A DNA stretch of 64,000 nt from Pyrrhoderma lamaoense. Taxonomy: Eukaryota > Basidiomycota > Agaricomycetes > Hymenochaetales > Hymenochaetaceae. The notes under the pieces were generated by a model. That model was not told the origin of the DNA. It ran no database searches and saw nothing but the letters and a program-made list of their open reading frames with translations. This document shows positions 728-57,576 of this stretch, one piece after another; position 1 is the stretch's first letter, and every line of letters begins with the position of its first letter. The stretch spans positions 248,001-312,000 of the forward strand of contig NBAZ01000021.1 of assembly GCA_002794735.1 (NCBI GenBank), written 5' to 3'. Position numbers and translations under genes: made by a program.

Positions 728-1474
728 ATGGCAGATAAAGCAGACCCAAGAAAAAATAGTACCCAGCAAGGCCGAAGGCTAATAACCAATCCGGCGGAAA
801 CTCGAACTGTTACTAAAATGAGCGCACCTTCTACTCCGGGTCTAAAACAGCCTGCGAAGGCTTCAAGTTCAGTTGCCACGGGTCCGGTTGCAGGAAGTTC
901 TTCAGATGGTACGCCTGTAACGCTTAAAAGGAAGTCAACTTCCGACAACAGTACTTCGAAGCCTATGAAACTTGTTCCTATTGCACCGGCGTCACAACCT
1001 AGGAAAGTAGAGCCTAAGCCTAAAGATCCATATACAGAAAGAGCAGATAAACTGAAAAAAGAGCAAAATCTCATAACAGATACGATCAAGAGGCGAAAAA
1101 GGGATAACCTCACATTTGGGCAGTATAAGAAGTATGATAGGGGAAGTATTTGGTTACTTGAGGAGCCATATAATGAAGATGCTGAAAATAGAGAGGAGGA
1201 GGAGCACGATGAAAGGTGTAAGATATTAGGATCTATTCGCATCGCACTAAGGGCACAAAGCAAGACTTTGTCAGAATACATATTGAATGAAAAAGCCATC
1301 AAAGATTTATTGAAAGAGGCACATGTAGGGGATGATGTAATGAGGAGAATCTCAACGTTATTTTCGGACGTGCAAGTTCAAGATTTAGGCAAAAAAACCA
1401 AGATCGAGTTTAATGAGGGCGTAAAATTACTTGAAAAAAAAATGAAAAAACGAAATCCTCAGAAGAAACAATAG
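728..1474 (+). CDS. WLKEP-family orphan protein, member 1
   Basis: Intronless frame of 248 residues starting at an ATG; function unknown. The first ~110 residues are Ser/Thr/Pro/Lys-rich and look disordered, with basic patches such as LKRKS that could be nuclear-localisation signals. A charged helical stretch follows, then at about residue 141 the family signature W-L-L-E-E-P followed by an acidic E-rich segment (NREEEEHDE) and an amphipathic C-terminal part ending in a Lys tail (EKKMKKRNPQKKQ). The same order of parts occurs in three more frames at 7.4-11.9 kb, although this copy is the most diverged. Repeated preservation of the signature in four places supports real coding sequence. I recognise no domain of known function; a DNA- or RNA-binding nuclear role would only be a guess from composition. 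Confidence 0.75.
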   Translation: MADKADPRKNSTQQGRRLITNPAETRTVTKMSAPSTPGLKQPAKASSSVATGPVAGSSSDGTPVTLKRKSTSDNSTSKPMKLVPIAPASQPRKVEPKPKDPYTERADKLKKEQNLITDTIKRRKRDNLTFGQYKKYDRGSIWLLEEPYNEDAENREEEEHDERCKILGSIRIALRAQSKTLSEYILNEKAIKDLLKEAHVGDDVMRRISTLFSDVQVQDLGKKTKIEFNEGVKLLEKKMKKRNPQKKQ

Positions 1475-2694
1475 GCAAGAACTCACAATTTCTTTTCAGC
1501 TTTGGACTGCCGAATGAACGACTGCATAGTCCGATGTAGCTGAGGGTTAGAAATACATGTTATTACTGATGAACTTGCTAATATAATGCTAATACTCATT
1601 TGCATATGCATCAACCATATGAACTTGCGTTCATAACTTCGATGAGCTTACAACATGACCGATCTACGTCCTTTAGCATACGATAAACAGGAAGATTGTT
1701 GACACGATATGATCTAGATGTTGCCTTACAACCACAACTTATATGTTAGCTACATGTATAACTACGTCACCAGTTTTTTTTTCTTCTTTTTGTTGACTGT
1801 ACACATACAATTCAACATCTAAGCTACATTATTGATTTTTGCATATTATGTACCTCACACATGATTTATACACTACTTACGACAGGATCTCGATCAGTTC
1901 CCAAGGCGTGTTGTAATCATAAATCTGAGTTACGGTAGCTTTGTAAGTAAAGATTTCTGAGACAGGGACAAGAAACATTAGTTTCAAAAGCTGAAGTAAT
2001 TTATAAGCCGATTAAACCATCATTTACCGAATTTGAATCTTTGTACACATTTTTAGTGACGTTTCTCATTCTAACAGTGGCAAAAGATGATAAGATATAG
2101 AGACACTGGCAAAGATGTTGTGAGTTACGGCATAGTGTGTCTGGATGAATTCTGCCAACTATGATAAGTAAGATAACAGTTTTATATATAGCCGAAGTAG
2201 AAAAAGTCATCAATTTAGGTGATTTCCCCCATCAGGCCCAGAGTATTTTGGCGTTTTACACCACATATGCTAAGACTGAGATAGCAAGAGTCTTGTTTCG
2301 GGATTTTTGACCTGAATATACTAGAAGTGAGACAATAGGGTAGACAAAAGCATCAGAATATGAAACCGTGCCCTATAATCATCCTAAAACTGACATGGGG
2401 CATTTCAATATTCTGTCTAAGAGTATTGTGTTGCTAGGCCCAGGTATTCAACAAAAATACATGATAACAATGTTTATATATGGATTATTTAATTAGTAAT
2501 GTCACGGAAAGTATAAACTATGATACATCTGCTTAATACTAAATAATAGTCGCTACGATGCTTGAAACTGAATTTGCTTCCTTCCATATAAATTAGTGAC
2601 GATCTAATTTCTCACGGCACTCAATAGGATTTTTTAAATTCTGAGCAAAAGAGTCTTGGATTAGGAGCCACGATACGTGATATCGAGTACAAAT
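1475..2694. other. Intergenic, nothing recognised
   Basis: AT-rich. It separates WLKEP member 1 from the 3' end of the minus-strand DUF6533 gene, so both genes converge here. Short open frames have no ATG start or no recognisable content. Confidence 0.5.
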
Positions 2695-4321
2695 TTATAT
2701 AAACTCCATATCGCTTAAACGTTCCTCTTGTCTATAAGTTGTCCCTTCGTGAACGCCGATCTCTGCTGCCTCCTTCAAATTATAGATCAGACGTCCACCA
2801 AGCAAGCTCAGAAGAACGATACTGGCATTCCCCAATCCAGCTAAAGTTGCTACAGTATATAGGTCAGTAAGCGGTAGAACGTGGTTCAATATACTTAGAA
2901 TGCCACAGCTGACGACTCTGGAAAATTCGTGCATGTTATAAGTCCGAATAACAACCAAAATGGAATAACCGCTTACAGAAGGTAGTAGATAGCTTGATCT
3001 CGGATAAGAACCTTGACGAGGAGAAAACCTCTGAAACCTGCAGAAATCATCCAGAACTCTTTCGCTTTATGCAATGCCAGGATCATAAACAGTAGTCCAG
3101 AAGCAGATACAAATACCCTGATAAGGTTGAGTTAATAGTATAATTGATATACCAGATCAAGGGATATCCCGTACCAGTCTGCAAGTGTAATTTTCCAGCT
3201 ATCACGAAAAGTAGATGCTTCTTCGACGCAAACTACTACTCCTGGTATTAGAACTGAGGCAAAAGCTAGATAGAAAATCAGCGCTATGGCTTCGTTGTAA
3301 CATAATTTGCTATACTTTGTGCGTTACGTTCTATCACTTCCATGAAAACAACAGTGAATTTCATGATTGCTTCAGCAGCTACTAGAGTCTTCAAAAAAAC
3401 TGCTAGTCTTTTATCTAAGGAGGATAAGTGCGCACATCCCTACATTCTTGTAGATTATGTCAAAAATTACACTCACTTTGAGCCCAAAAGGCTAGCACAC
3501 GTATCACTAATATATCTAGCGAAGAAACTTATACATCAAGCATATACTGATTAGACGTAAAACTTACAGTCCACGGTAACGACTGTAAACGCTTCTACTA
3601 TGCTGTTAATTCCGGCTCAGTCTTCTTGTAACTATACTCACGGGAGATGTTAAAACACCAATTAACGGAGCGACCTAGTCCAATATTCATATATGTACAT
3701 TATTTGTGCTGAATTTACGATGGCTCACACCTAGATACTAGGTAAGTGAACATCTTGCGCATGACAATTAGAAACCCCTACAGGCTTGTATATGCACTAA
3801 AGGAGTTCTCTTATAAAATAGATGGAGGTATGTGAGAAACCTGAGTTATAATTCAACTTGTCACTCACGAAGTGGTAAAGATATCGCTGCAACTATGCCG
3901 AAATATCGGTTCTATACTTAAGTTAGTAATCATGTCTTCTTGCAACTCGTCTGTCTTCATAGAACATACAATATAGAATACAAAGTCGACGAAGGAACGC
4001 GGCCTCTTCTAAAAATATGACTTGTTACGCAAACATTATTTCACGAGTTGATTAGTGATACTTACCCAAAAGTATTTAACCTTCATCTGTAGTTGGGCAG
4101 CTATCTCACGTTTGCAGATCTTAAAGATAGACGCACCTCTTTATCGATGGTAATACCTTTCAAATTCCACTCAGAATTGATAACATTCACATTCATAAAC
4201 GATATGCGTACTTACAGTAATCATGAATAATCAATGTTGCAGCAATCATAGCAATATATTGAACGATCGAGACTTCTCGCAAAAATACAGTTATAGCCTC
4301 TGCACGGGATTGAGAAGACAT
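2695..4321 (-). CDS. DUF6533 multi-pass membrane protein (copy 1)
   Basis: I reconstruct about 12 small exons giving ~290 residues with several hydrophobic segments. Exon 1 (4216-4321) encodes the start MSSQSRAE and the first membrane segment ending IIHDY; later exons give KYFWKRPRSFVDFVFYI, then NRYFG, VDYILVIRVLAFWAQ, LIPGVVVCVEE, a segment around FVSASGLLFMILALHKA, then VLIRDQAIYYLL. The C-terminus contains GGRLIYNLKEAAEIG and ends LSDMEFI. This pattern (first TM with an aspartate, NRY, R-x-W/F-A, IRDxxxYY, LLxNLKEA) is what I know of DUF6533 proteins, a basidiomycete family of unknown function. All junctions I checked keep the frame, including 3' splice sites preceded by CTAAC/TTAAC-like branch sites, so the gene appears intact. 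A second copy with matching exon pattern lies at 28.0-29.5 kb. Confidence 0.85.
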
Positions 4322-6477
4322 TTTTATCGGAAATGTTATCGAGAGGATGCCGGTAATAGTCACTTTTCCTGAGAAGCTGAGAAGTTGCAAAAAAATACTG
4401 GCTTAGTGTTCTACTAATTTATATGGGGAAGGCAATCTTGATGATAACAAGTATTTGCTTCTGATTAGCTACTGAATGACAATTTCGTTAGCAGTCGTCA
4501 GGATACGCTATCTGTAAGCCCCAAACGTATACATACCAGATCAGGATCTACAAGATCTAACCACATCAAATTTTGGGGACCATATTCTCGAAACGCTTCT
4601 TTTTCATTGAAGAGTTTGCATTTGTAGGGGGGAGTATTAATCAATAGATATCTCCCATCAGTTTTAGAGCCGGTTTATCCCATAGGGGTATATGTGACTC
4701 TCGTAACCTACTGTGGCAAATATGATATTTGAAACTTTATATATACACATAAGCGCTTCTTGCTCGAGTTTTCCTTATTGCTTGATTCTGCTAGTGTAGT
4801 AAGTACCACATTCAAAAGCACCATTGGTCGAATCTATATGCAAGAGTAAGAAAATTGCTTTGACTAATTTTATCTCATTTTCTGATCTGATCAAAATCGT
4901 GATGGAAATGTAAAAGAAGAAGACCGGGCACACGTCGGGGCAGCATTGATACACTTATACCAGCTATTGCCCGACGGCGAATGGAGACATCTTGTGGCTT
5001 AAAAATCATAATATACTTGTGGCATGATACGTAACTTTCAGAGTTCAAGGGAATTATACAAAAAACTTCTCGAATGATTTTACACATTCGTTGTCAGAGT
5101 CTTCGGAAGCCATGAAGAGTATCAGCGGCCGTGATATCGCACTTTCTAAGGCTGTATGACTATCTTAAGCGGTTCAATAAATCGCATTTATATGTGCACA
5201 TGTATTGGATGTATGTATACTAAGAGAACACGGAAGAAAAACCTGAAGAGAGTCGCTGACCGATGGATTTCTACATATGGATACTTGAGTGTTGGATGAG
5301 CCCAATAGTGGATATTCTTCTCTAGAGATCCCAGGATGAGTGCATAGCTCCTGGATCGGAGCTTGTGCATAATATGGAGTTAGTATCAAATGCGTCATAA
5401 GGACAGATAGGTGGATGGATAGGTGTCTCGCATAATAATGATGACGATGTGTTCCATCACTTTCCAGAGAGTAACGAGCTCGTATACTCGATATCACGAC
5501 ATTTTCTTTGGTTCTTACTTCTCATTCGGTATTTGTACATGTACATGCAGACTTAGTATCTGATAATAATATACTTCCCATTCCAAATTATACATGTATA
5601 AGGACTTTATTTTCCGGACTTGCATGTTTTCTGTTTGCATTTCGATCTTAATACTCAAGTGAACAAGCTACAGGATATGTTGTTGCAATTTAATCAGCTT
5701 GCATCTGCCTTAGCCTTTGTGCATGTAGGAAGGAAATTAGTCTTTGTTTGTGTCGGTTAAGTATTATTCCCACGGTAGGTTGACAGAGACTCAATGGTTT
5801 GGTTCTATGCAATTCACAACTTACTTCAATCACTGAAACACGTTTTTCTCTCATTCTTTACTTTGATCTCCCAATATCAATTTTTCTCGCTGTTTCATCA
5901 AAAATGGCAATCATTTTTCGGGGATATTCAACTAGGACGAAGACACTCACGTGGTGGTTTCCCAGTAGTTTATCTGCCAAATCGCTTACGCGACGAAAAC
6001 ACAATACGAGAACGAAAAGCTTTATAAAGGTGCAAGGGGCTGAATTATCTCTACTTACTATAGTGAGTCATGGCTCCTATTATGTACTGTGCTGTGCCGA
6101 ATAGTTTCATCACCTATGTTGAAGCCACCGCGTGGTGTGCACACGGTCAACGCGTCAAGTTTGGCTAATTTTTCTTTTCTGTTCACGTAGGCAAGCACGA
6201 GACCTTTGGTTCAAGCTTTATATCGCTATCGTACGAGTGATCTGTCGGGTAACGCACATAATAAAGAAACTGATTCACGAACGATATCTCATAGCGAAAG
6301 TGACTTTGAGGTTGTAGGCTTAGATGTTGGAGGATCCTTTGTAAGTCATTCGTTATAACATAGTAGCGTTATGCTCACGTGTATGCTTATGTGCTTGTCT
6401 GATTGATGAAAGGTTGACCTCCATGATCTTGGAGATGGTGAGTATTGTAGTTTACTAATCTAAGGTCTTAGGTATTA
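4322..6477. other. Intergenic; short ORFs only
   Basis: Promoter side of the DUF6533 gene, followed by about 2 kb with no recognisable gene. An ATG-started frame of 77 codons lies at 5794-6027 (+) and several overlapping frames lie at 5.2-5.5 kb (-); none shows a family motif, plausible splice partners or a copy elsewhere in the window. A degenerate membrane-protein gene cannot be excluded at 5.8-6.4 kb. Confidence 0.4.
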
Positions 6478-6888
6478 ATGACACATATCAACTCAGATAT
6501 GCTAAAAGCAGATGACCCATCTTGTTCACCTCCTACGACAGTATATGAGACGGATATATCTGGTATTGAAGATGATTTCTCATTTGCTACAGTCGAGGAT
6601 TATGTTTACGTATCGAAGGCTAGCGACAATTTTGCAACTGATGAAGCTGAGCTCGAATTCGGCTTCTTGGTAATGGACGAAAAGAATCCATATAAGTTCA
6701 GTACGGAGTCTCTAAGAGATGCTGGCAATCTACCTCTTGATGAGATAAATATAATTGAAGTACACAAACATTTGTCTGAAAGACTCTTATTCGGGGACGA
6801 TATGTCTTCTTGGCGCAACGAGAGCGGTGGGTCCGGAAGGCGACTCAACTTCGAACGCCGACCATCCAGTCTTCGAGTTGAGCTTTGA
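6478..6888 (+). CDS. Small acidic orphan protein
   Basis: Open frame of 136 codons from ATG to TGA, not recognised. The first ~60 residues are rich in Asp, Glu, Ser and Thr (ETDISGIEDDFSFATVEDY), and the C-terminus turns basic (GGSGRRLNFERRPSSLR). It has no membrane segment and no signal peptide. The preceding bases could hold a 3' splice site, so this may be the last exon of a longer gene. The opposite strand is also open for 80 codons, which lowers confidence a little. Confidence 0.45.
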   Translation: MTHINSDMLKADDPSCSPPTTVYETDISGIEDDFSFATVEDYVYVSKASDNFATDEAELEFGFLVMDEKNPYKFSTESLRDAGNLPLDEINIIEVHKHLSERLLFGDDMSSWRNESGGSGRRLNFERRPSSLRVEL

Positions 6889-7329
6889 GGGCATATTTAA
6901 TCACTTTCATAGTATACAGCGATAAATGTATGCTACTCATTATTTGTTTCATACCCGTTGCTTTGTTATATCTATAGTAATGTGCTGCTTATCAGGCTCT
7001 TTTTTATTCTACCTGATTATGTTGCTATTCTCTTCACCTCTCACTCACACTTTATCTTATACACAGAATCAATAACAAGTTATTATATACTCCTTCATAC
7101 GTAAGAATCGAATGATTGACCTGGTTAGCTAATAAGAGTTAGAGAGAGCTTCACAATTGCCATTTTCTTTTGCAAACTTACGTGTATGAGTATGCTTGAC
7201 CTTTTATTCAACTACTTCTCAGAATTAGTAATAAGCCTCGATATTTCACGATATTTGTTTACGTAATTACTATATAGACGCATCTTGGTGTATTATATTT
7301 GTCCATATTGCTAATTAATTTATGTTATT
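6889..7329. other. Intergenic before WLKEP member 2
   Basis: AT-rich, with no open frame of interest. It ends at the palindromic element at 7330. Confidence 0.5.
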
Positions 7330-7370
7330 GCAAAGCTCGGACACAGTTCAGACTTGTTCGGAGTATTGCA
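7330..7370 (+). promoter_or_regulatory. Conserved imperfect palindrome upstream of WLKEP member 2
   Basis: The element reads GCAAAGCTCGGACACA, a short spacer containing AGACTT, then TGTTCGGAGTATTGC. A nearly identical 42-base copy lies at 9846-9887 upstream of member 3. The two arms are imperfect inverted repeats (outer GCAA..TTGC, inner CTCGGACA facing TGTTCGGAG). It lies about 75 bases before the likely ATG at 7444. Conservation of this island inside otherwise unalignable AT-rich DNA suggests a binding site for a dimeric regulator or a core-promoter element; this is inference. Confidence 0.55.
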
Positions 7371-7443
7371 TGGGTGTAACATATAAGTACAATTATAACA
7401 TTATGCATTAGAGAATAGCATGCCCCATTTCTCGCGGATTAAA

Positions 7444-8376
7444 ATGTCAGACAGAAAGAAAATGGGAGATAACAGTACTCATCTAAAGCAGGGGCATTCA
7501 CATTTACAAGGTGCCAATTCAAGAAATTTTATGAGCCCAGCTCGAGCTCTAGGACTTCCTGCTTCTCTAGGTGACGTCGCGGGTGTAAATAAAAGAAGAT
7601 TATCAGGCATTAACACAGATAACCCTAGTTCAGGATTGGGAATGAAGATATCTACAAGCTCAAAAGTCTCCCCGTCTACTTCTAGCTCTCAACAAACGCA
7701 AAACAAAAAGTTGAAGACGAGTGAGGCGAGTACAGACAAAACTGTTACTGGTACAGATATAAGAGTTGGGTCACCAGTAGCAAAGACACCAGCAATAAAG
7801 AAAGGGAAAGGTAATGAGCCCCAAAAAGCTAAGCCTCCTAGGAAGACTGCACAGGAGCTGCAAGCTGAATTTGAAGCTGAGCTGGAGAAGCTCACGCCAG
7901 AAGAGAGAGCAGTGGCAATCTCGAAAGCAGAACATAAATTTATAAAAACTCTCGACATACATACCAAGAGATCGTTCTTTGTTAACAATGGCGATTTGAG
8001 AAACACGAGCTATTGGTTACTTAAGGTGCCGCGGTGTGATAGTAACACCAATAAAGAAAATGATGAATACGAATTCAGAAGGTCGCTACTGCTAGAAATT
8101 AATACCTGCATCTTCGAGCAAAAAAAACCTCTAGCTACGTATGGATTATCAACATGGATGTTAGAAAATTACATGAAAACATCATACAATAGCAGTACGC
8201 TCTATGAAGCCGCAAGAAGGCTTATAGTAGAGACAAGAGATAAGATGATTTCAAATAAAAAAGCAAAGAAGTTTTACAATGGAAAAATCGTAACTAAAGC
8301 TAAGGATCTATTACCCTTAATTGAACGAAGACTGAAGGATTTAGCTGTATCTGAAGCAGAGGAGAAAAAACCTTAA
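7444..8376 (+). CDS. WLKEP-family orphan protein, member 2
   Basis: Intronless, about 310 residues. I chose the ATG at 7444 (MSDRKKMGD) rather than 7420 because member 3 starts with the near-identical MSDRKNVGD. Residues 1-135 are low-complexity Ser/Thr/Pro/Lys with basic clusters (NKKLKTSE, KKGKG). A charged region follows (AELEKLTPEERAVAISKAE), which matches AELEKLSPEEKAIKISEKE of member 3. The signature SYWLLKVP lies near residue 190, then S-N-T-N-K-E-N-D-E-Y-E, then KKPLATYGLS and a C-terminal helical part with YNGKIV and ERRLKDL. No known domain is recognised. A shared upstream palindrome suggests common control with member 3. Confidence 0.85.
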   Translation: MSDRKKMGDNSTHLKQGHSHLQGANSRNFMSPARALGLPASLGDVAGVNKRRLSGINTDNPSSGLGMKISTSSKVSPSTSSSQQTQNKKLKTSEASTDKTVTGTDIRVGSPVAKTPAIKKGKGNEPQKAKPPRKTAQELQAEFEAELEKLTPEERAVAISKAEHKFIKTLDIHTKRSFFVNNGDLRNTSYWLLKVPRCDSNTNKENDEYEFRRSLLLEINTCIFEQKKPLATYGLSTWMLENYMKTSYNSSTLYEAARRLIVETRDKMISNKKAKKFYNGKIVTKAKDLLPLIERRLKDLAVSEAEEKKP

Positions 8377-9845
8377 AAAACACTACAAGTACGAGAAAAG
8401 ACGGGGCGCCTCTTTGGTGGTAGAGGCTCAGGCTCCCTCCCCAATAGTTCCAAAGCCAAATATTATGGAACCAGACGTGCCTTTATGTCAAAGGGAATTA
8501 AGTTCATATATATACGCGGATAACAATCTTTTCAAAGTATAGTAATACTGACTAAGAGTATATATACGGATATTATGAGATATGATTAATAATGAAGTAT
8601 GTATTCAGTATCATTATTTAGATGCAGCAGGTGCTAGCCATATTAGAAACTATATTCACATGCAAAGAAAACTGAAGCTAGCCTTTGCCCTCCACCCCCT
8701 CGAATCTTAGTGTCGAGCTCCTTTAGCTTCCTTACCCCTCCTCCCTCTCCCTTCCATCCTATTCCATCTCCCTTCGGACTGCACAAACGATATCAAGAAA
8801 TACTAATAGAAGAATGTGTATTTGAATGTGAATGCGTTCTTGAATGCGGAATTTTTATTTTTGGTTATACCAAACTAACGTAGGTAATACTTACTTATAC
8901 TTCTGCAAAGCAAGACGTTCGTAAGTGTATTTCTCAGTTAAGGATTTGCTCTTATACACGCGTGGAAGATCATAAATCAGCCATTCATTAAAAAAAGTTG
9001 GTAGAAAGGTGGAGGGCAAAGGAGAAAGGGAGTAATTGTATGTGTAGTTAACTAGTTGCGTCAACAGAATAAAGGTAAAGTAATGAATGGATATATGGAC
9101 GGATCGATGACTCTACTAGTGGTGGTGGTGATGACGACGTCCCCCCATCTCCTCTCGGATAGGAGAAATAAGATTCGTATGTACGAGATTCATAACATTG
9201 ATATCTCTATTACAGGTTTTTTACTCAACACGCTCATATATCAAACTATACATACGTGTGTATATTGTACATATTTGCATGAACGGCCTGAAAAGACAGT
9301 TCAAATATCGCCAATGGTGTGAGATATTTGTCCTCTTCATTCAAAGTAAAAAAAAGGAAAATTAATCATCTTGAAAGATAGAGAAAAGGTCATGGCAAAT
9401 GGCAAGAAAGAAGGTTGGTTCGCGGTTTAGTGGCCCATCTAGAAAGTGAGTATGAGAAACTCGATGAATCTGTTTAACCATTCTACACTGTGGTGAAATA
9501 TGGAAAATATAATAAGCCCACCAAAACTCCCAACAGCACTATTAAATGGCATTTTATGTCAATTCTCTTTCCTCTCCTCGTAAGTCATTATAAGGAAAGA
9601 CAAAAATAGTTAATACGTCGTAACCAGAAGATACCTTTACCTCATATAGAGAAGTAATGCAGAACTCTATAATTGCCACCCCTTTGATGCATGATGCAAA
9701 GCTAAGTGTACAATCGTACAAGATCTCGTACTTGGTGTATCTACCTTCCCAAAGCTCTTATTATAAGATAAAAAGTTACGTAACTAAACTAATTAGATAG
9801 AAAAAAAGGCATATTGGAATTACTCATGATGTGCATGTTACTTAC
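8377..9845. other. Intergenic between WLKEP members 2 and 3
   Basis: AT-rich, with a purine/pyrimidine-biased stretch at 8.68-8.78 kb. No supported gene; the frame at 9056-9322 starts at TTG and has no recognisable content. Confidence 0.5.
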
Positions 9846-9887
9846 GCAAAGCTCGGACACAAATAAGACTTTTGTTCGGAATATTGC
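9846..9887 (+). promoter_or_regulatory. Conserved imperfect palindrome upstream of WLKEP member 3
   Basis: Second copy of the element at 7330: GCAAAGCTCGGACACA, spacer with AGACTT, TGTTCGGAATATTGC. It lies about 135 bases before the ATG at 10022. The surrounding sequence is not alignable to the member 2 promoter, which makes the element stand out. Confidence 0.55.
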
Positions 9888-10021
9888 GTGAGATGCGAAA
9901 CAGTTTCTTGGTAGGTTATATAAAGACTAGATATCACTTTGTACTCTACGTGAGTCAAATCTTAATCCCCTCCTCATAATAATAATAATTTTCTTTTTAT
10001 CTCGCGTGAAGTAAAGACAAA

Positions 10022-11092
10022 ATGTCGGATAGAAAGAATGTAGGGGATCATCATAGTCCTCACCTGAAGCCAGGTTACTCATTTTCCCAAGGTGCTGCTG
10101 CTGGTGCTGCTGCTTCGAATAGCGTCATGAGTGCAAGTCTGTTTCCATTTCCAGAATCTCCTGCACCTCCAGATGACACGATAGGATCCAGCAAGAGAAA
10201 ACTATCAAGTGCTAGCACTGATATTCCTAACCCTGGAGTGGGAGCAAAGAAATCTTCTGCAAGCTCAAAAGTACCTCCGTCTACTTCTGGTTCTCAACGA
10301 GCACAGAGTAAAAAGCTGAAGCGGAGTGATGACACGAATACAGATCATCAGACTGCTGGTGCTGCTGGGGGTGGTGCTGTTAAGAGAGCTTCGTCACCGG
10401 GAGCAAAGAAACCAGCAACGAATAAAGGGAGTAGAAAGGCTTCACAGGCGCTCTACGAGGCTGAGCTGGAGAAACTTTCACCAGAAGAGAAAGCAATAAA
10501 GATTTCTGAGAAGGAGAACAGTGCGTTTGAGTATCTAGACAAGAGAACGAAGAGAGCGCTGCTTACTAACGATGGTAATGAAGCGAGTAACTCGAGATAT
10601 TGGTTACTTAAGGAACCTCGGAATGATAGTAACGTCAATAAAGAATATGATGAGTATGAGTTAAGGAGATCGATAATGCTTCTGATAAGGATATGTATCG
10701 GTCAACAAAAGAAACCTCTAGCTGAGTATGGACTGTCAATGAAGATGGTAGAGGATTATATGAGAACGCCGTTCGGACCAAGTTCGTTCTACAAGTCTTG
10801 TAAAAAACTTTTTGAAGAAGCATGGAGCCAAGCAATTAATAACAGGAAAGCAAATAAATATTACCATGGGCAACTCGTGAACAGGGTTAAGGATGCGATG
10901 CCTATAGTGGAACGGAAGATCAGAGAGTTGGAAGGATCTGAATTAGCGGAGAGAAAACTTGAAACGGAACGATCACTTGGTGGTGGTGGTGGTGTCATCG
11001 CAGAGTCGTCTTCTCCTCGCACAGCACAGCCAAAGATAGAGAAGAGAGTAGAATCGACTGTACATGCACTGCTAGTAGTACCAAGACCTTAG
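10022..11092 (+). CDS. WLKEP-family orphan protein, member 3
   Basis: Intronless frame of 356 residues from ATG (MSDRKNVGDHH). The N-terminal ~130 residues are low-complexity with an Ala tract (GAAAGAAAS), basic clusters (SSKRKLSS, SKKLKRSDD) and a Gly run. AELEKLSPEEKAIKISEKE is followed by the signature RYWLLKEPRNDSN near residue 192, the acidic NKEYDEYELRR, QQKKPLAEYGLS, and a helical C-terminus to about residue 325. The last ~30 residues (after GGGGGVIAES) look like out-of-frame translation. Another frame stays open from here into member 4 without a new ATG, so members 3 and 4 may be one two-domain gene split by small indels. Close to member 2 in sequence and promoter element. No function can be assigned. 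Confidence 0.8.
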   Translation: MSDRKNVGDHHSPHLKPGYSFSQGAAAGAAASNSVMSASLFPFPESPAPPDDTIGSSKRKLSSASTDIPNPGVGAKKSSASSKVPPSTSGSQRAQSKKLKRSDDTNTDHQTAGAAGGGAVKRASSPGAKKPATNKGSRKASQALYEAELEKLSPEEKAIKISEKENSAFEYLDKRTKRALLTNDGNEASNSRYWLLKEPRNDSNVNKEYDEYELRRSIMLLIRICIGQQKKPLAEYGLSMKMVEDYMRTPFGPSSFYKSCKKLFEEAWSQAINNRKANKYYHGQLVNRVKDAMPIVERKIRELEGSELAERKLETERSLGGGGGVIAESSSPRTAQPKIEKRVESTVHALLVVPRP

Positions 11093-11945
11093 CCGGTTCT
11101 TCCCTCAAGGCTAGTGCCAGTGGTTCATCATCGACGTTTCCTGGCCAAGTTAACTTTCAATTAGCAGTACCGAAAAGAGCTGTAGGAGAAGAGATTCGAG
11201 GTCTATCTCCAGCTTCAGCTAAACCTAGTATGAAATTGGTATCAGTTCGACCAAAAACTGGTTCACCAGCCTCAGTGGCGCCAACGACGACGACGACGAC
11301 GGCGGCGGCGGCGGCAGGGAAAGCAACAGCTAGTAGTACACTGAAAGTAGTCAATGCTCCCAAGGCTCCTCGGAAGCCTGCCCAGGAACCACAATCCGAA
11401 TCCAACGCTGGGCATAAAAACCTCCACCAGACGAACAAACAAAGAAAGCATCAGAACAAGACTGTGCGAGTATAACATCGCTCATGGCGTCTGTCAACAG
11501 ACCACATAACAATTATAGTAGGAAAGGATGTTGGGTGCTTAAGGAGCCCAAGAACAATAGTAATGAGAATAGAGAAGAAGAAGAATACTTGAAGCGAAAG
11601 GAATACGTACTTGCAGTGAGGTTCTCTATCAGCGAACTGAAAGAGCCTTTAAGGAATTATAGTCTATCTATTGCTGAGTTCGAAAGATACATGAAGACAT
11701 CGTTTGAGAGCGCTATGTTCTACTCTAACGGCATACAGGCTCTTCAAAACGCACAACATCAAGCTTTAATGGTTGACACAAAGACGAAGAAACGGAACAC
11801 TCAATTGTTGAACAAGATTAGAAAGGCTATGGATTTCGCTAGACCAAGGATGGAGGCATTAACTGAAGCCGATATAGCGAAAAGAAATCTTGGCACGAAC
11901 CCACAAGTTCAAGAGAAGATAATGAAGATATTTGGTAGCGGTTAA
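11093..11945 (+). CDS. WLKEP-family member 4 (frame interrupted)
   Basis: The coding signal is spread over two frames. The upstream frame (from ~11.1 kb, first ATG at 11230) gives a Ser/Thr/Ala/Pro/Lys-rich segment with (T)n(A)n and KAPRKPAQEP, similar to KPPRKTAQEL in member 2. The next frame resumes before the ATG at 11484 with PPDEQTKKASEQD, matching the PEEKAIKISEKE region, then CWVLKEPKNNSN, NREEEEY, KEPLRNYSLS and YMKTSF. The switch falls at a run of five A at 11416-11420, where one more A would join the frames. No independent start is obvious at the 5' end, so this could be the second half of member 3. Function unknown. Confidence 0.65.
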
Positions 11946-31546: not shown

Positions 31547-33099
31547 ATGAGTACTGAAACAGGGATTCCAGCACTGGATAATACGGTAATATTCCTTTTA
31601 TGGCATTACACGGAAGTATATTTACATTCTTATTTGCAAACAGATGGGGTGTCTGTACATAGCGACAGTGTGAGTGCTCCTTTTATCGAGACAGGCTTGT
31701 TTTCTCTAACACGAGTTTCTAGAGTGACGATGGGGTATGTCCAATTTTAAAAATACGGCGCGTTCTAGCGTCAGAAGATTCAACTCTATTTTAGACTTTG
31801 GGGCATGGGAAGTCTCCAAGTTTTTACCTATTATAATGTATGTCGCGGGAAACCGTCTTTAATTTTCGTCCCCCGAGTCGTTTGCTCAATCTGCGTGCCT
31901 TATAGCAATACCGGAAAGACCAAGCGTGGTTAAAACTACTGGTATTTCTAGTCTGGGCTTTAAATACAGCACACCAGGCCCTTACGATCTATTCAACGTA
32001 CATATATTTAATTTCACATTACGGTGATATCTCGTATCTGGATCATTATAATGCGTATGTGGTCTTACCTTTCATAATACTTGGGGGATAGAAAGTACTA
32101 ACTAGGTTGTAGTGCATTGAAGGCAACCATCATGTTCACTGCCATATCCTGCGGCTTAGCACAATCTTTGTATATCGTACGAATTTACCGGTGTGCGTAT
32201 TAGGCTGTGTTTTTTCTAAAAACTTTTCACTCATCGTGTCCATAGTGAGCCAGCACAATCTGTTTCTAACCGGTCTCATCACATGTCTCGTCCTAGCTCA
32301 ATGCACAATTACAACAGTGTACTATGCAAAAACTTACGACCTGGATACTTTCTCCGGCTTGCTAAACACTATTTATATTCCAAAGATAATCTCCGCTGTA
32401 GTAACTGGCACGGATGTTTGTATACTGGGTGTAACGGCATATTTACTGCATATGAGCAGGTCGGGCTTCTCACGCACTGAGAATGTCATAAACCGACTTA
32501 TTATTTATGCGGTCAATATAGGAATATTGACGTGTACATGCGCTATTTTGACACTCGTTTTTTGTTTGGTATATCCAACGGCGTTGATTTATATTGCATT
32601 TTACCTCACGTTATCTAGAAGTACGTATAACGTTTCAATTTTTATGAAATTTATTCGCTAACATTTAAATTAAAGTCTACATGGGTTCCATGATGGCTTC
32701 GTAAGTGTTTCGATTCTTCCACGGCTATATTGTTGTATACTTACTAATCGCTTTATTATAGTCTAAACTCCAGGAAGAGTCTTCGGGGAGATTTATTTGA
32801 TAGCTCGCCTGGTGATAACTTCGATTTAAAAAGGGTGGTAGGCCGTCGTGGTGGAAGTGCGTCAGGGCCTTTAAACATCAAGGTGGAAACGCAAACGGTT
32901 CAGTACAATGATTCCGAAGTGAATGAAGTTAGTTTATGATTTGCTTTTTTTCCAACGAATAAATGAAATTGAGCTAATGAATCTCACCCTGGATCTTCTT
33001 ATATTGCCGGCTGTCTAGTATGGAAGCGAAAGGAACAAGTCACCGGATCTTTCAGTTCAAGACCTCGAAGCAAATTATTCCAAACCTCAGGCCCTTTAG
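31547..33099 (+). CDS. DUF6534 multi-pass membrane protein (copy 1)
   Basis: Exon 1 starts at ATG 31547 (MSTETGIPALDNT). Following exons encode a membrane segment with LVFLVWALNTAHQALTIYS (~31.94 kb), ALKATIMFTAISCGLAQSLY, and a long exon (to ~32.63 kb) with TGLITCLVLAQCTITTVYY, VVTGTDVCILGVTAYLLH, SRSGFSRTENVINRLIIYAV and a final TM ending AFYLTLSR. The segment T-D-x-C-I...S-R-S/T-G-F-x-R-T-x-x-x-I-N-R-L-I is the hallmark of DUF6534. The C-terminal tail (MGSMMASLNSRKSLRGDLF, then acidic sequence) ends at TAG 33097 after a last exon with KSPDLSVQDLEANY. The junctions around 31.7-31.95 and 32.08-32.11 kb are uncertain and may hide a single-base error. Function unknown. Confidence 0.8.
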
Positions 33100-47713: not shown

Positions 47714-49472
47714 ATGTCCGGATACAGCCCTCAACTGTGTAACAGAGACTTGTTTAGAGACCAAAGGGGTGGATGGTCATCCAAAAACACCCAAAACAAC
47801 TCGTCGTCACTTATGAAATCTTGGGAGACAATAGCTCGCCGTCTCCTCTCCTTACGAAATAACTCAGACAGTAATCATTACGAGCTCCTTCCAGTCAACA
47901 ACGAAGATGACCGCCGTTTCCGTACTGCGCGCCCAACCTCCCCATCATCATCGTCGACGCGCTCAATTGTACTCGCCTTTATTCACCTTATAACCTTACG
48001 AAGATGTCTCCTGTTTGTTGTTTCTGTGTTTTCGCTATTATCTTTAGGTGTACTATGGTCTGGCATTCCTCCGAGTTATAATAACATTCGACGGTTTGAG
48101 AACAAGCTTCCGCAGCACAATAAAAATCTACCTTTTCCCGAGGGTCAAAACGGTGTGTATTTGAGGTTTCCAGAGCATCTCTGGGGACATGGTTTAAATA
48201 ACGTACTTCAGGAACAGTGAGTGTTCTAATTACTGGGCAAAAGAGATATCCTTACATCTGATGTTTGATTGAATCCGTGATCCCTTTCATTAGTATCCTT
48301 ATGGCACATCTTGCTTACCTCTCAAAGCGTTCATTTGTATTCGAAGAGTATACATGGTCAAAATCCCCTCTACCATACACTATTTATGATTTTGCTCTCC
48401 GTCCATCACGTATTCCTATGAATGCGTTCATATCCGGTCCCTCTGTGGGTGGACCAACTCCAGACCCACCACGCGCTGTTAGCGCGTCATTCTACGAAGA
48501 GATCTGTCCTTCTGAGAAACGTGTGTATCTTGACTCTGCAGACGCGCCAGATACACTCGACGGTCAAGAACTGACGAACTGGTGGGTCAACCTGCTCACT
48601 ACTTCGGAACAAACACGAAACGCGAGTTGCGTGGAAGTGGGCAACTCCCCTCCTGTGTTCTCCTGGTCCTGTTTAGCTCTGAGAAGCTGTTGACAGTCTG
48701 GGATTCGTTGAAGGAGAGTCCGGTGGTTAAGGAGTTTGCTTGGTCGCCGCTTGTGACTTCAGCTGTTGCGAGGAACATGGCTTTGTTGACGAGTGCGCCT
48801 CCGTCGAGCGTGTCGACTTCTAGGTCGGATGTTATTAGGGGTTTGGTAGCTATACATTTAAGAAGAGGCGATTATCGGAGGCACTGTCCAAGACTGGCGG
48901 AATGGAACGCGGTATACCAAGCTTACAACAAGTTCCCAGGGTTACCTGACACTTTCTCTCCACCTTCTTCCTCTTCTTCTGCTGACGAGATTAGTGAAGC
49001 AGACACGAATGGTGATGGTGTAGTGGACCATGAAGAGAAGGAGAGATATTATCTAAAACATTGTTGGCCGGAGGTGGATGAGATTGTTGAAAAGTTGCGT
49101 GAGGTGAGGAAGGATAGGCCGGACTTGCAGCGGGTGTTTGTGTTGACGAACGGATGGAGTTGGTGGGTTGATAGTCTACGAGAGGCATTGGTGGAAAATT
49201 CGAAAGAAGAGGAGAGGTGGACGGATGTGAGGAGTAGTATGGACGTTCAGTTGGATAAGGAACAGGAGTACGTGAATGCTGCGATTGATATGGCTATCGC
49301 GGAGAGGGCGGAAGTGTTTATCGGAAATGGGGTAAGTGCTCTATCCTTATTGTTATGTATGTTACGCACACTAATCGGACATGATATGATGTAGTTCTCA
49401 AGTTTAACATCAAATATTGTGATGTTAAGAATGGCGAAAGACATGGACCCTCATAGTATCCGTTTCTGGTGA
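47714..49472 (+). CDS. Fucosyltransferase-like type II membrane protein
   Basis: Three exons: 47714-48216, 48294-49331 and 49395-49472. After a Ser/Arg-rich cytosolic head, one membrane anchor (CLLFVVSVFSLLSLGVLW) is followed by a lumenal domain starting VYLRFPEHLWGHGLNNVLQE, then YTIYDFALRPSRIPMNAFI, AWSPLVTSAVARNMA and AIHLRRGDYRRHC, the HxRRGD motif of fucosyltransferases. The end is GNGFSSLTSNIVMLRMA and HSIRFW. It would act in the Golgi on glycoproteins or wall glycans; the donor GDP-fucose is inferred from fold similarity only. The exons sum to 1619 bases, one short of a multiple of three. The frame changes near 48665 between CVEVGNSPPVFSW and LFSSEKLLTVW, where one extra T restores ~539 residues. 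Confidence 0.85.
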
Positions 49473-57474: not shown

Positions 57475-57576
57475 AGCCCACCGCGAGGGTCGAACTCGCA
57501 GCCTTCAGATCGCCTTATTTTATTATTCAAGACACTCGTAAGAGTCTGACGCTCTATCCGATTGAGCTAGGCGGGC
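57475..57576 (-). tRNA. tRNA-Lys(CUU) with 28-base intron
   Basis: On the minus strand the acceptor arm GCCCGCC (57570-57576) pairs with GGTGGGC (one G-T pair). The D arm is GCTC..GAGC with A-box TAGCTCAATCGG. The anticodon stem is TCAGA/TCTGA with loop CTCTTA-A, giving anticodon CUU. The T arm is GCGAG-TTCGACC-CTCGC. An intron of 28 bases (57511-57538) interrupts the loop at the canonical position 37/38. CCA is not encoded. All cloverleaf stems can form. Confidence 0.95.

What the first reader, a model, noticed from the sequence alone, without database searches (positions are those of the whole stretch)
728..11945. Tandem family of four unrecognised paralogs (WLKEP family)
Four frames share the same build: a long Ser/Thr/Pro/Lys-rich basic N-terminus, a PEE-K charged helix, the signature [YIC]W[LV]L[KE]xP followed by S-N-x-N-[KR]-E and acidic residues, a (K)PLxxYxLS motif and a helical basic C-terminus. 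Divergence is large in the N-terminus and small in the signature, as expected for a fast-evolving but functional family. No known domain comes to mind. Local expansion, basic nuclear-like composition and position next to a repeat array make it a candidate lineage-specific system (DNA binding, genome conflict or effector-like); the role is pure inference.
Basis: partly seen in the sequence, partly recalled or inferred. Interest (0 to 1): 0.75.

Follow-up and report, generated by a model that had tools for sequence, protein, structure and literature searches.

The report
Orphan tandem gene family in fungus
A fungal genome, probably of a mushroom related to the Hymenochaetales, carries at least seven related genes of unknown role in two clusters that look like selected protein genes but match nothing named in the libraries searched; this is a real but ordinary kind of novelty.

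Summary
Four paralogous frames lie at 728-11945, plus strand, related far beyond chance. The four closest pairs give dN/dS 0.29-0.59 with upper bootstrap limits below 1, so these frames encode selected proteins. Two of seven, P4 here and C1c on C1, change frame at or near short homopolymers: decayed genes or assembly errors. The proteins have a disordered Ser/Thr/Pro/Lys-rich first third and a helical core with a conserved W-[LV]-L-x-x-P...N-[KR]-E loop (core pTM 0.76). Pfam, NCBIfam, PHROGs, PDB, viral contigs and the large protein set gave no significant match, though that last search was saturated. One neighbouring gene places the host near Hymenochaetales. Best reading: a lineage-restricted, locally duplicating family of intracellular, probably nuclear, helical adaptor proteins; the role is inferred. 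Secreted-effector and transposon readings find no support; genome conflict stays untested.

The parts
728..1474 (+). P1: most divergent member, 248 aa, single uninterrupted frame from ATG to stop
   Evidence: 21-39 bits to the other six members by phmmer
7444..8376 (+). P2: 310 aa from the ATG at 7444 (an earlier in-frame ATG lies at 7420), single uninterrupted frame
   Evidence: 47% identity to P3 in the genome search; ATG positions read
10022..11092 (+). P3: 356 aa, single uninterrupted frame; the member whose structure was predicted
10457..10990 (+). core domain of P3 as modelled: helices around a poorly predicted signature loop (W49 to N61 of the core)
11095..11417 (+). Ser/Thr/Pro-rich stretch in another frame that looks like the N-terminal part of P4 (includes RKPAQEPQSES, like RKTAQELQAEF of P2); limits approximate
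   Evidence: similarity to P2 and P3 read by eye
11418..11945 (+). P4: core part only, 175 aa; in a different frame from its apparent N-terminal part, the change lying at or near a short A run
7330..7372 (+). upstream element of P2, starting 114 bp before the ATG, shared with P3; imperfect inverted repeat (by eye) containing CAAAGCTCGGACAC
9846..9890 (+). upstream element of P3, starting 176 bp before the ATG; 84% identical to that of P2 over 45 columns; the 14-mer CAAAGCTCGGACAC was found only at these two places in the genome

Best explanation
This is a genuine, probably lineage-restricted family of protein-coding genes that grew by tandem duplication in two places (C21 and C1) of a Hymenochaetales-like genome. 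Shown: seven loci, selection on the protein in the pairs that can be measured, a disordered basic first third and a helical core (as predicted), patches of near identity between neighbouring copies, and two copies whose frame changes. Inferred: the proteins stay inside the cell and most likely enter the nucleus (basic KRK/KRR and KKLK patches, hydrophilic N-termini). There the helical core, with its conserved W-[LV]-L-x-x-P...N-[KR]-E loop as contact surface, would bind a protein partner, while the Ser/Thr/Pro-rich tail would be the regulated, fast-changing part. Duplication and patchwise exchange among neighbours keep producing variants.
For: Seven loci, each recovered by all four member queries tried, of seven members (the weakest cross-matches have E 0.0013 and 0.0025). 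Pairwise 21-438 bits, no shuffled hit of 1400. dN/dS with bootstrap 95% range: P2/P3 0.29 (0.17-0.43), C1a/C1b 0.59 (0.42-0.85), C1a/C1c 0.51 (0.32-0.84), C1b/C1c 0.51 (0.31-0.82). AlphaFold2: P3 residues 1-131 almost wholly under pLDDT 50, helices between 137-181 and 207-320; core alone mean pLDDT 80.5, pTM 0.76. Near-identical patches (100-column windows): C1a/C1b 96-98% in windows starting at nt 195-345, C1b/C1c 94-98% in windows starting at nt 545-645, against 65-89% and 63-87% elsewhere, bar one 97% window upstream and one 44% window downstream in C1a/C1b. Basic patches and hydrophilic starts listed. The two clusters fall on two sides of one branch, support 94/93, just short of the tool's mark for a firm branch.
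Against: No expression data. Nuclear localisation and partner binding rest on composition only; no predictor or assay was run. The C1 copies exchange patches, which disturbs their dN/dS, and the N-terminal part of C1a/C1b alone gives 0.80 with no interval computed. dS is saturated or very high for the deeper pairs, so P1 and P4 have no reliable dN/dS. Two of seven members change frame, which also fits slow decay. C1b shows two basic patches and the C1c core one, fewer than P1 and P2 (the N-terminal part of C1c was not in that list). Part of the C1b/C1c patch may be protein constraint: C1a/C1c also rises to 85-89% in windows starting at nt 545-595.
Confidence: 0.5

Rival explanations
1. A self/non-self or genome-conflict family (allorecognition, killer or drive element) whose variable N-terminus and exchange between copies create specificities.
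For: Tandem copies, divergence and mosaic exchange; lineage-specific genes of Neurospora cluster with HET-domain genes and more than a quarter respond to perturbation of the mating locus (PMC10684091, abstract and section list seen).
Against: dN/dS is below 1 in the four measurable pairs, also in the N-terminus (0.80 for C1a/C1b, 0.33 for P2/P3, no intervals computed for these parts), so no sign of diversifying selection. Neither cluster adjoins the mating-type candidates: homeobox hits are on C14 and at C1:2.699-2.707 Mb, about 0.4 Mb from the C1 cluster, and STE3 hits are on C2 and C3. The HET search rang nowhere, controls included, so it tells nothing.
Confidence: 0.1
2. A decaying orphan family: old duplicates drifting, of little present use.
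For: P4 and C1c change frame; dN/dS of 0.51-0.59 within the C1 cluster is not strict.
Against: Five of seven frames are intact over 248-356 codons; P2/P3 dN/dS 0.29 (0.17-0.43) at dS 1.29; C1c's core shows a ratio no higher than that of the intact pair (0.51 against 0.59); both changes lie at or near 5-base runs, which also suits an assembly error.
Confidence: 0.2
3. A protein family carried by, or taken from, a mobile element or virus: uninterrupted frames, multicopy, without known domains.
For: Uninterrupted frames in five of seven members; no named relatives found.
Against: Only two clusters; no transposon or viral domain; the spacer 1480-7395 matched only itself and one neighbouring gene's paralog, in a search that skips very common words and so cannot prove it unrepeated; no confirmed relative in two scans of viral contigs and no viral fold match at E <= 0.001 for the P3 model.
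Confidence: 0.07
4. Conserved family of Hymenochaetales or wider Agaricomycetes that only looks orphan because the protein search was saturated (compatible with the best explanation except for 'lineage-restricted').
For: Both family searches scored only the roughly 8000 candidates sharing most words (7993 and 7995), and low-complexity words can crowd out distant relatives; no related genome is held for comparison.
Against: The same collection finds agaricomycete relatives of a neighbouring gene, down to 53% identity among the 120 listed of 507, so relatives that close, if present, would probably have ranked.
Confidence: 0.3

Closest known systems
Lineage-specific (orphan) genes of fungi, e.g. 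those of Neurospora (PMC10684091, abstract and section list seen)
   Same: Few or no recognised domains, no relatives found outside
   Different: Here a family of at least seven with a predicted helical core in two tandem clusters; no HET neighbour shown; position relative to telomeres not determined
Talin R13 / HIP1R THATCH helical bundles (2jsw, 1r0d)
   Different: Below the level that the tool's own note calls meaningful for helical bundles; 9% and 7% identity; no Foldseek match at E <= 0.001
Basidiomycete mating-type homeodomain proteins
   Same: Basic, nuclear, fast-evolving proteins (recalled)
   Different: No homeobox match in the family; the genome's homeobox hits lie elsewhere

Membership tests
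Lineage-restricted (orphan) gene family | Frames are coding and under selection | tested here: met
   dN/dS 0.29-0.59, upper 95% limits 0.43-0.85, in four measurable pairs
Lineage-restricted (orphan) gene family | No relatives outside the lineage | tested here: inconclusive
   No hit in about 5.8 billion proteins at E <= 1 (four rows) and E <= 10 (seven rows), but the candidate lists were saturated; no related genome held
Known protein domain family | Match over a curated cut-off in Pfam or NCBIfam | tested here: not met
   No match over cut-off for seven members in Pfam or four in NCBIfam; best E 0.0083 and 0.0086; no Pfam family matched more than 2 of 7 members even at E <= 1
Talin/THATCH-type helical bundle | Shared fold over the core | tested here: inconclusive
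Transposon or virus protein | Element or virus domains | tested here: not met
   None over cut-off in Pfam and nothing under E 0.05 in PHROGs for seven members
Transposon or virus protein | Dispersed copies of the protein | tested here: not met
   Seven copies in two clusters
Transposon or virus protein | Repeated flanks or terminal repeats | tested here: inconclusive
   Only the P1-P2 spacer was searched in the genome, by a search that skips very common words
Secreted effector | N-terminal secretion signal | tested here: inconclusive
   First 25 residues of the five intact members look hydrophilic by eye; no predictor was run
Mating-type gene | Homeobox or pheromone-receptor domain, or tight linkage to them | tested here: not met
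   No such domain in the members; nearest homeobox hit about 0.4 Mb from the C1 cluster, no homeobox or STE3 hit on C21
HET-type incompatibility genes | HET domain in or beside the clusters | tested here: inconclusive
   No hit in the genome, but none in the 14 control genomes either

The most novel reading that the evidence does not exclude
A previously undescribed helical domain, unique to one mushroom lineage, whose tandem copies exchange patches by gene conversion to produce variants used in nuclear or individual recognition.
Probability: 0.07. Interest if true: 0.65.

Novelty: new member of a known kind. Interest (0 to 1): 0.32.

Why it matters
If it holds, the family is a compact case for asking how an orphan protein gains a folded core and then diversifies: two clusters, intact and frame-changed copies side by side, and patchwise exchange. 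It also gives annotators a signature for a family that the libraries searched leave unnamed. By itself it does not change what is known of fungal biology.
Full report
WHAT WAS CHECKED. Translation shows them at 728-1474 (P1, 248 aa), 7444-8376 (P2, 310 aa), 10022-11092 (P3, 356 aa) and 11418-11945 (P4, 175 aa), all plus strand. Aligned, they share the W-[LV]-L-x-x-P signature, the acid run after it, and the helical C-terminal part; P1 departs from the S-N-x-N and PLxxYxLS motifs. By phmmer all 42 directed pairs among the seven family members score 21 to 438 bits, and none of 1400 residue-shuffled controls was reported at E <= 10. In 300 first-order Markov simulations of the first 13.5 kb the longest open stretch was 212 aa (mean of the longest 118), below the 254, 325 and 360 aa of P1-P3 stop to stop. 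The resemblance is not chance.

HOW LARGE THE FAMILY IS. Four of the seven members were used as queries against the whole genome (30.65 Mb, 72 contigs): P3, C1b, P1 and P4 (E <= 1 for the first, E <= 10 for the others). Each recovers the same seven loci, the weakest at E 0.0013 and 0.0025; beyond them only single matches at E 6.8 and E 1.7 appear. Besides the four here there are three tandem copies on contig C1, minus strand, about 3109460-3114362: C1a, C1b and C1c (L016: 2456-3433, 4440-5450, and 6416-6925 with 6913-7362). The searches score only the best candidates, so seven is a lower bound. In a tree of the seven cores the two clusters fall on two sides of one branch (ultrafast bootstrap 94, SH-aLRT 93, just short of the tool's mark for a firm branch), with P1 on a long branch and uncertainly placed.

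CODING AND SELECTION. dN/dS (Nei-Gojobori, 500 codon bootstraps): P2/P3 0.29 (0.17-0.43), C1a/C1b 0.59 (0.42-0.85), C1a/C1c 0.51 (0.32-0.84), C1b/C1c 0.51 (0.31-0.82). Differences pile up at third codon positions (95, 88, 143 at positions 1, 2, 3 for P2/P3). Deeper pairs are saturated or have dS of 2.5 or more and say little. By part, without intervals, the ratio is 0.80 in the N-terminus and 0.45 in the core for C1a/C1b, 0.33 and 0.24 for P2/P3.

FRAME-CHANGED MEMBERS. P4's core is open from 11418, but the stretch that resembles its N-terminal part is open in another frame up to about that point; no convincing intron fits. C1c is split in the same way between its N-terminal part and core; middling intron candidates of 107 and 140 nt exist, yet comparison with C1b by eye runs straight through. 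Both changes lie at or near five-base runs. They may be pseudogenes or assembly errors; C1c's core is as constrained as that of its neighbours. I used the parts separately and mended nothing.

MOSAIC COPIES. The C1 cluster is a tandem of roughly 2 kb units that are 69-74% alike over their length. Identity in 100-column windows is uneven: C1a and C1b are 96-98% identical in windows starting at nt 195-345 of the coding part, and 65-89% elsewhere bar one upstream window at 97% and the last at 44%; C1b and C1c are 94-98% in windows starting at nt 545-645 and 63-87% elsewhere. The second patch may owe something to constraint, since C1a/C1c also reaches 85-89% there. Synonymous distance between C1a and C1b is 0.17 in the N-terminal part and 0.50 in the core. 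This points to gene conversion or unequal exchange among neighbours; no formal test was run.

RELATIVES. No member reaches a Pfam cut-off (seven scanned) or an NCBIfam cut-off (four scanned); the best E-values are 0.0083 and 0.0086, and no Pfam family matched more than two of seven members. PHROGs (best E 0.05), PDB sequences (best E 0.087) and two scans of viral contigs give nothing significant. The protein collection gave no hit with four rows at E <= 1 or seven rows at E <= 10, but both times only about 8000 word-sharing candidates were scored, and low-complexity words may have filled that list. A neighbouring gene of the C1 cluster, which some source names call ribosomal protein L10, finds 507 relatives (120 listed) in the same collection, the best named being from Phellopilus nigrolimitatus (74%) and Coniferiporia weirii (75%), with one unnamed sequence at 99%. 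So fungi are covered and close relatives of the family would probably have been seen; distant ones are not excluded. On this one gene the host is near Hymenochaetales; the genus is not settled.

SETTING. To the left of P1 lies a gene with a MYND finger (L017 5359-5799, E 2.1e-9). Between P1 and P2 there is an open frame on the minus strand at 2.7-3.1 kb and a plus-strand gene of about 5.8-6.9 kb with a diverged paralog at C21:185.3-186.6 kb. To the right, minus-strand exons at 15.0-16.2 kb read FDM, an intron, then DGTLTDS, as in HAD phosphatases (motif recalled; read from the DNA; Pfam gave no hit). The C1 cluster lies between the L10-like gene and, on the other side, open frames that look like a cellulase, an EF-hand protein and a long repeat protein, judged by eye. 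Homeobox hits are on C14 and at C1:2.699-2.707 Mb, STE3 hits on C2 and C3: the clusters do not adjoin these loci.

UPSTREAM ELEMENT. P2 and P3 share a 45-column element (84% identical), an imperfect inverted repeat by eye, starting 114 and 176 bp before the ATG. Its 14-mer CAAAGCTCGGACAC was found nowhere else in the genome (2 hits, 0 in the backward control). A looser form occurs upstream of C1a and C1b, but the evidence for a common element is weak.

READING. The best-supported account is a probably lineage-restricted, tandemly duplicating family of intracellular helical proteins with disordered basic tails, under purifying selection where this can be measured, two of seven members with changed frames. 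A nuclear location and a protein-binding role for the core are inferences from composition and from the invariant loop residues. Whether the family serves recognition, regulation or conflict cannot be told from sequence. Orphan families are common in fungi (general knowledge, recalled), which is why the interest score is modest.

Noticed in passing
about 5750-7030 (+) and C21:185302-186599 (L042 about 5300-6600, -): A gene between P1 and P2 without Pfam match has a diverged paralog (68-69% DNA identity) about 67 kb away, near frames that look like urease by eye; it shows no relation to the family.
   Followed up: partly
L016, C1 cluster (units from about 1411 to 7352 of the reverse complement): Tandem 2 kb units with patches of 94-98% identity amid mostly 63-89%, as if by gene conversion.
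   Followed up: partly
7330-7372 and 9846-9890: Shared imperfect inverted repeat upstream of P2 and P3; its 14-mer was found only there in the genome.
   Followed up: partly
   Followed up: no
32113-32658 (+): DUF6534 domain (E 2.1e-10), a family of unknown function.
   Followed up: no
48534-49391 (+): GDP-fucose protein O-fucosyltransferase domain (E 2.3e-8).
   Followed up: no
57475-57576 (-): tRNA gene (Rfam, 52.6 bits), 102 bp, so probably with an intron.
   Followed up: no
L044 5939-7249 and 8396-8920 (-): Two similar AAA-ATPase-like stretches in tandem near the C1 cluster (named by eye).
   Followed up: no
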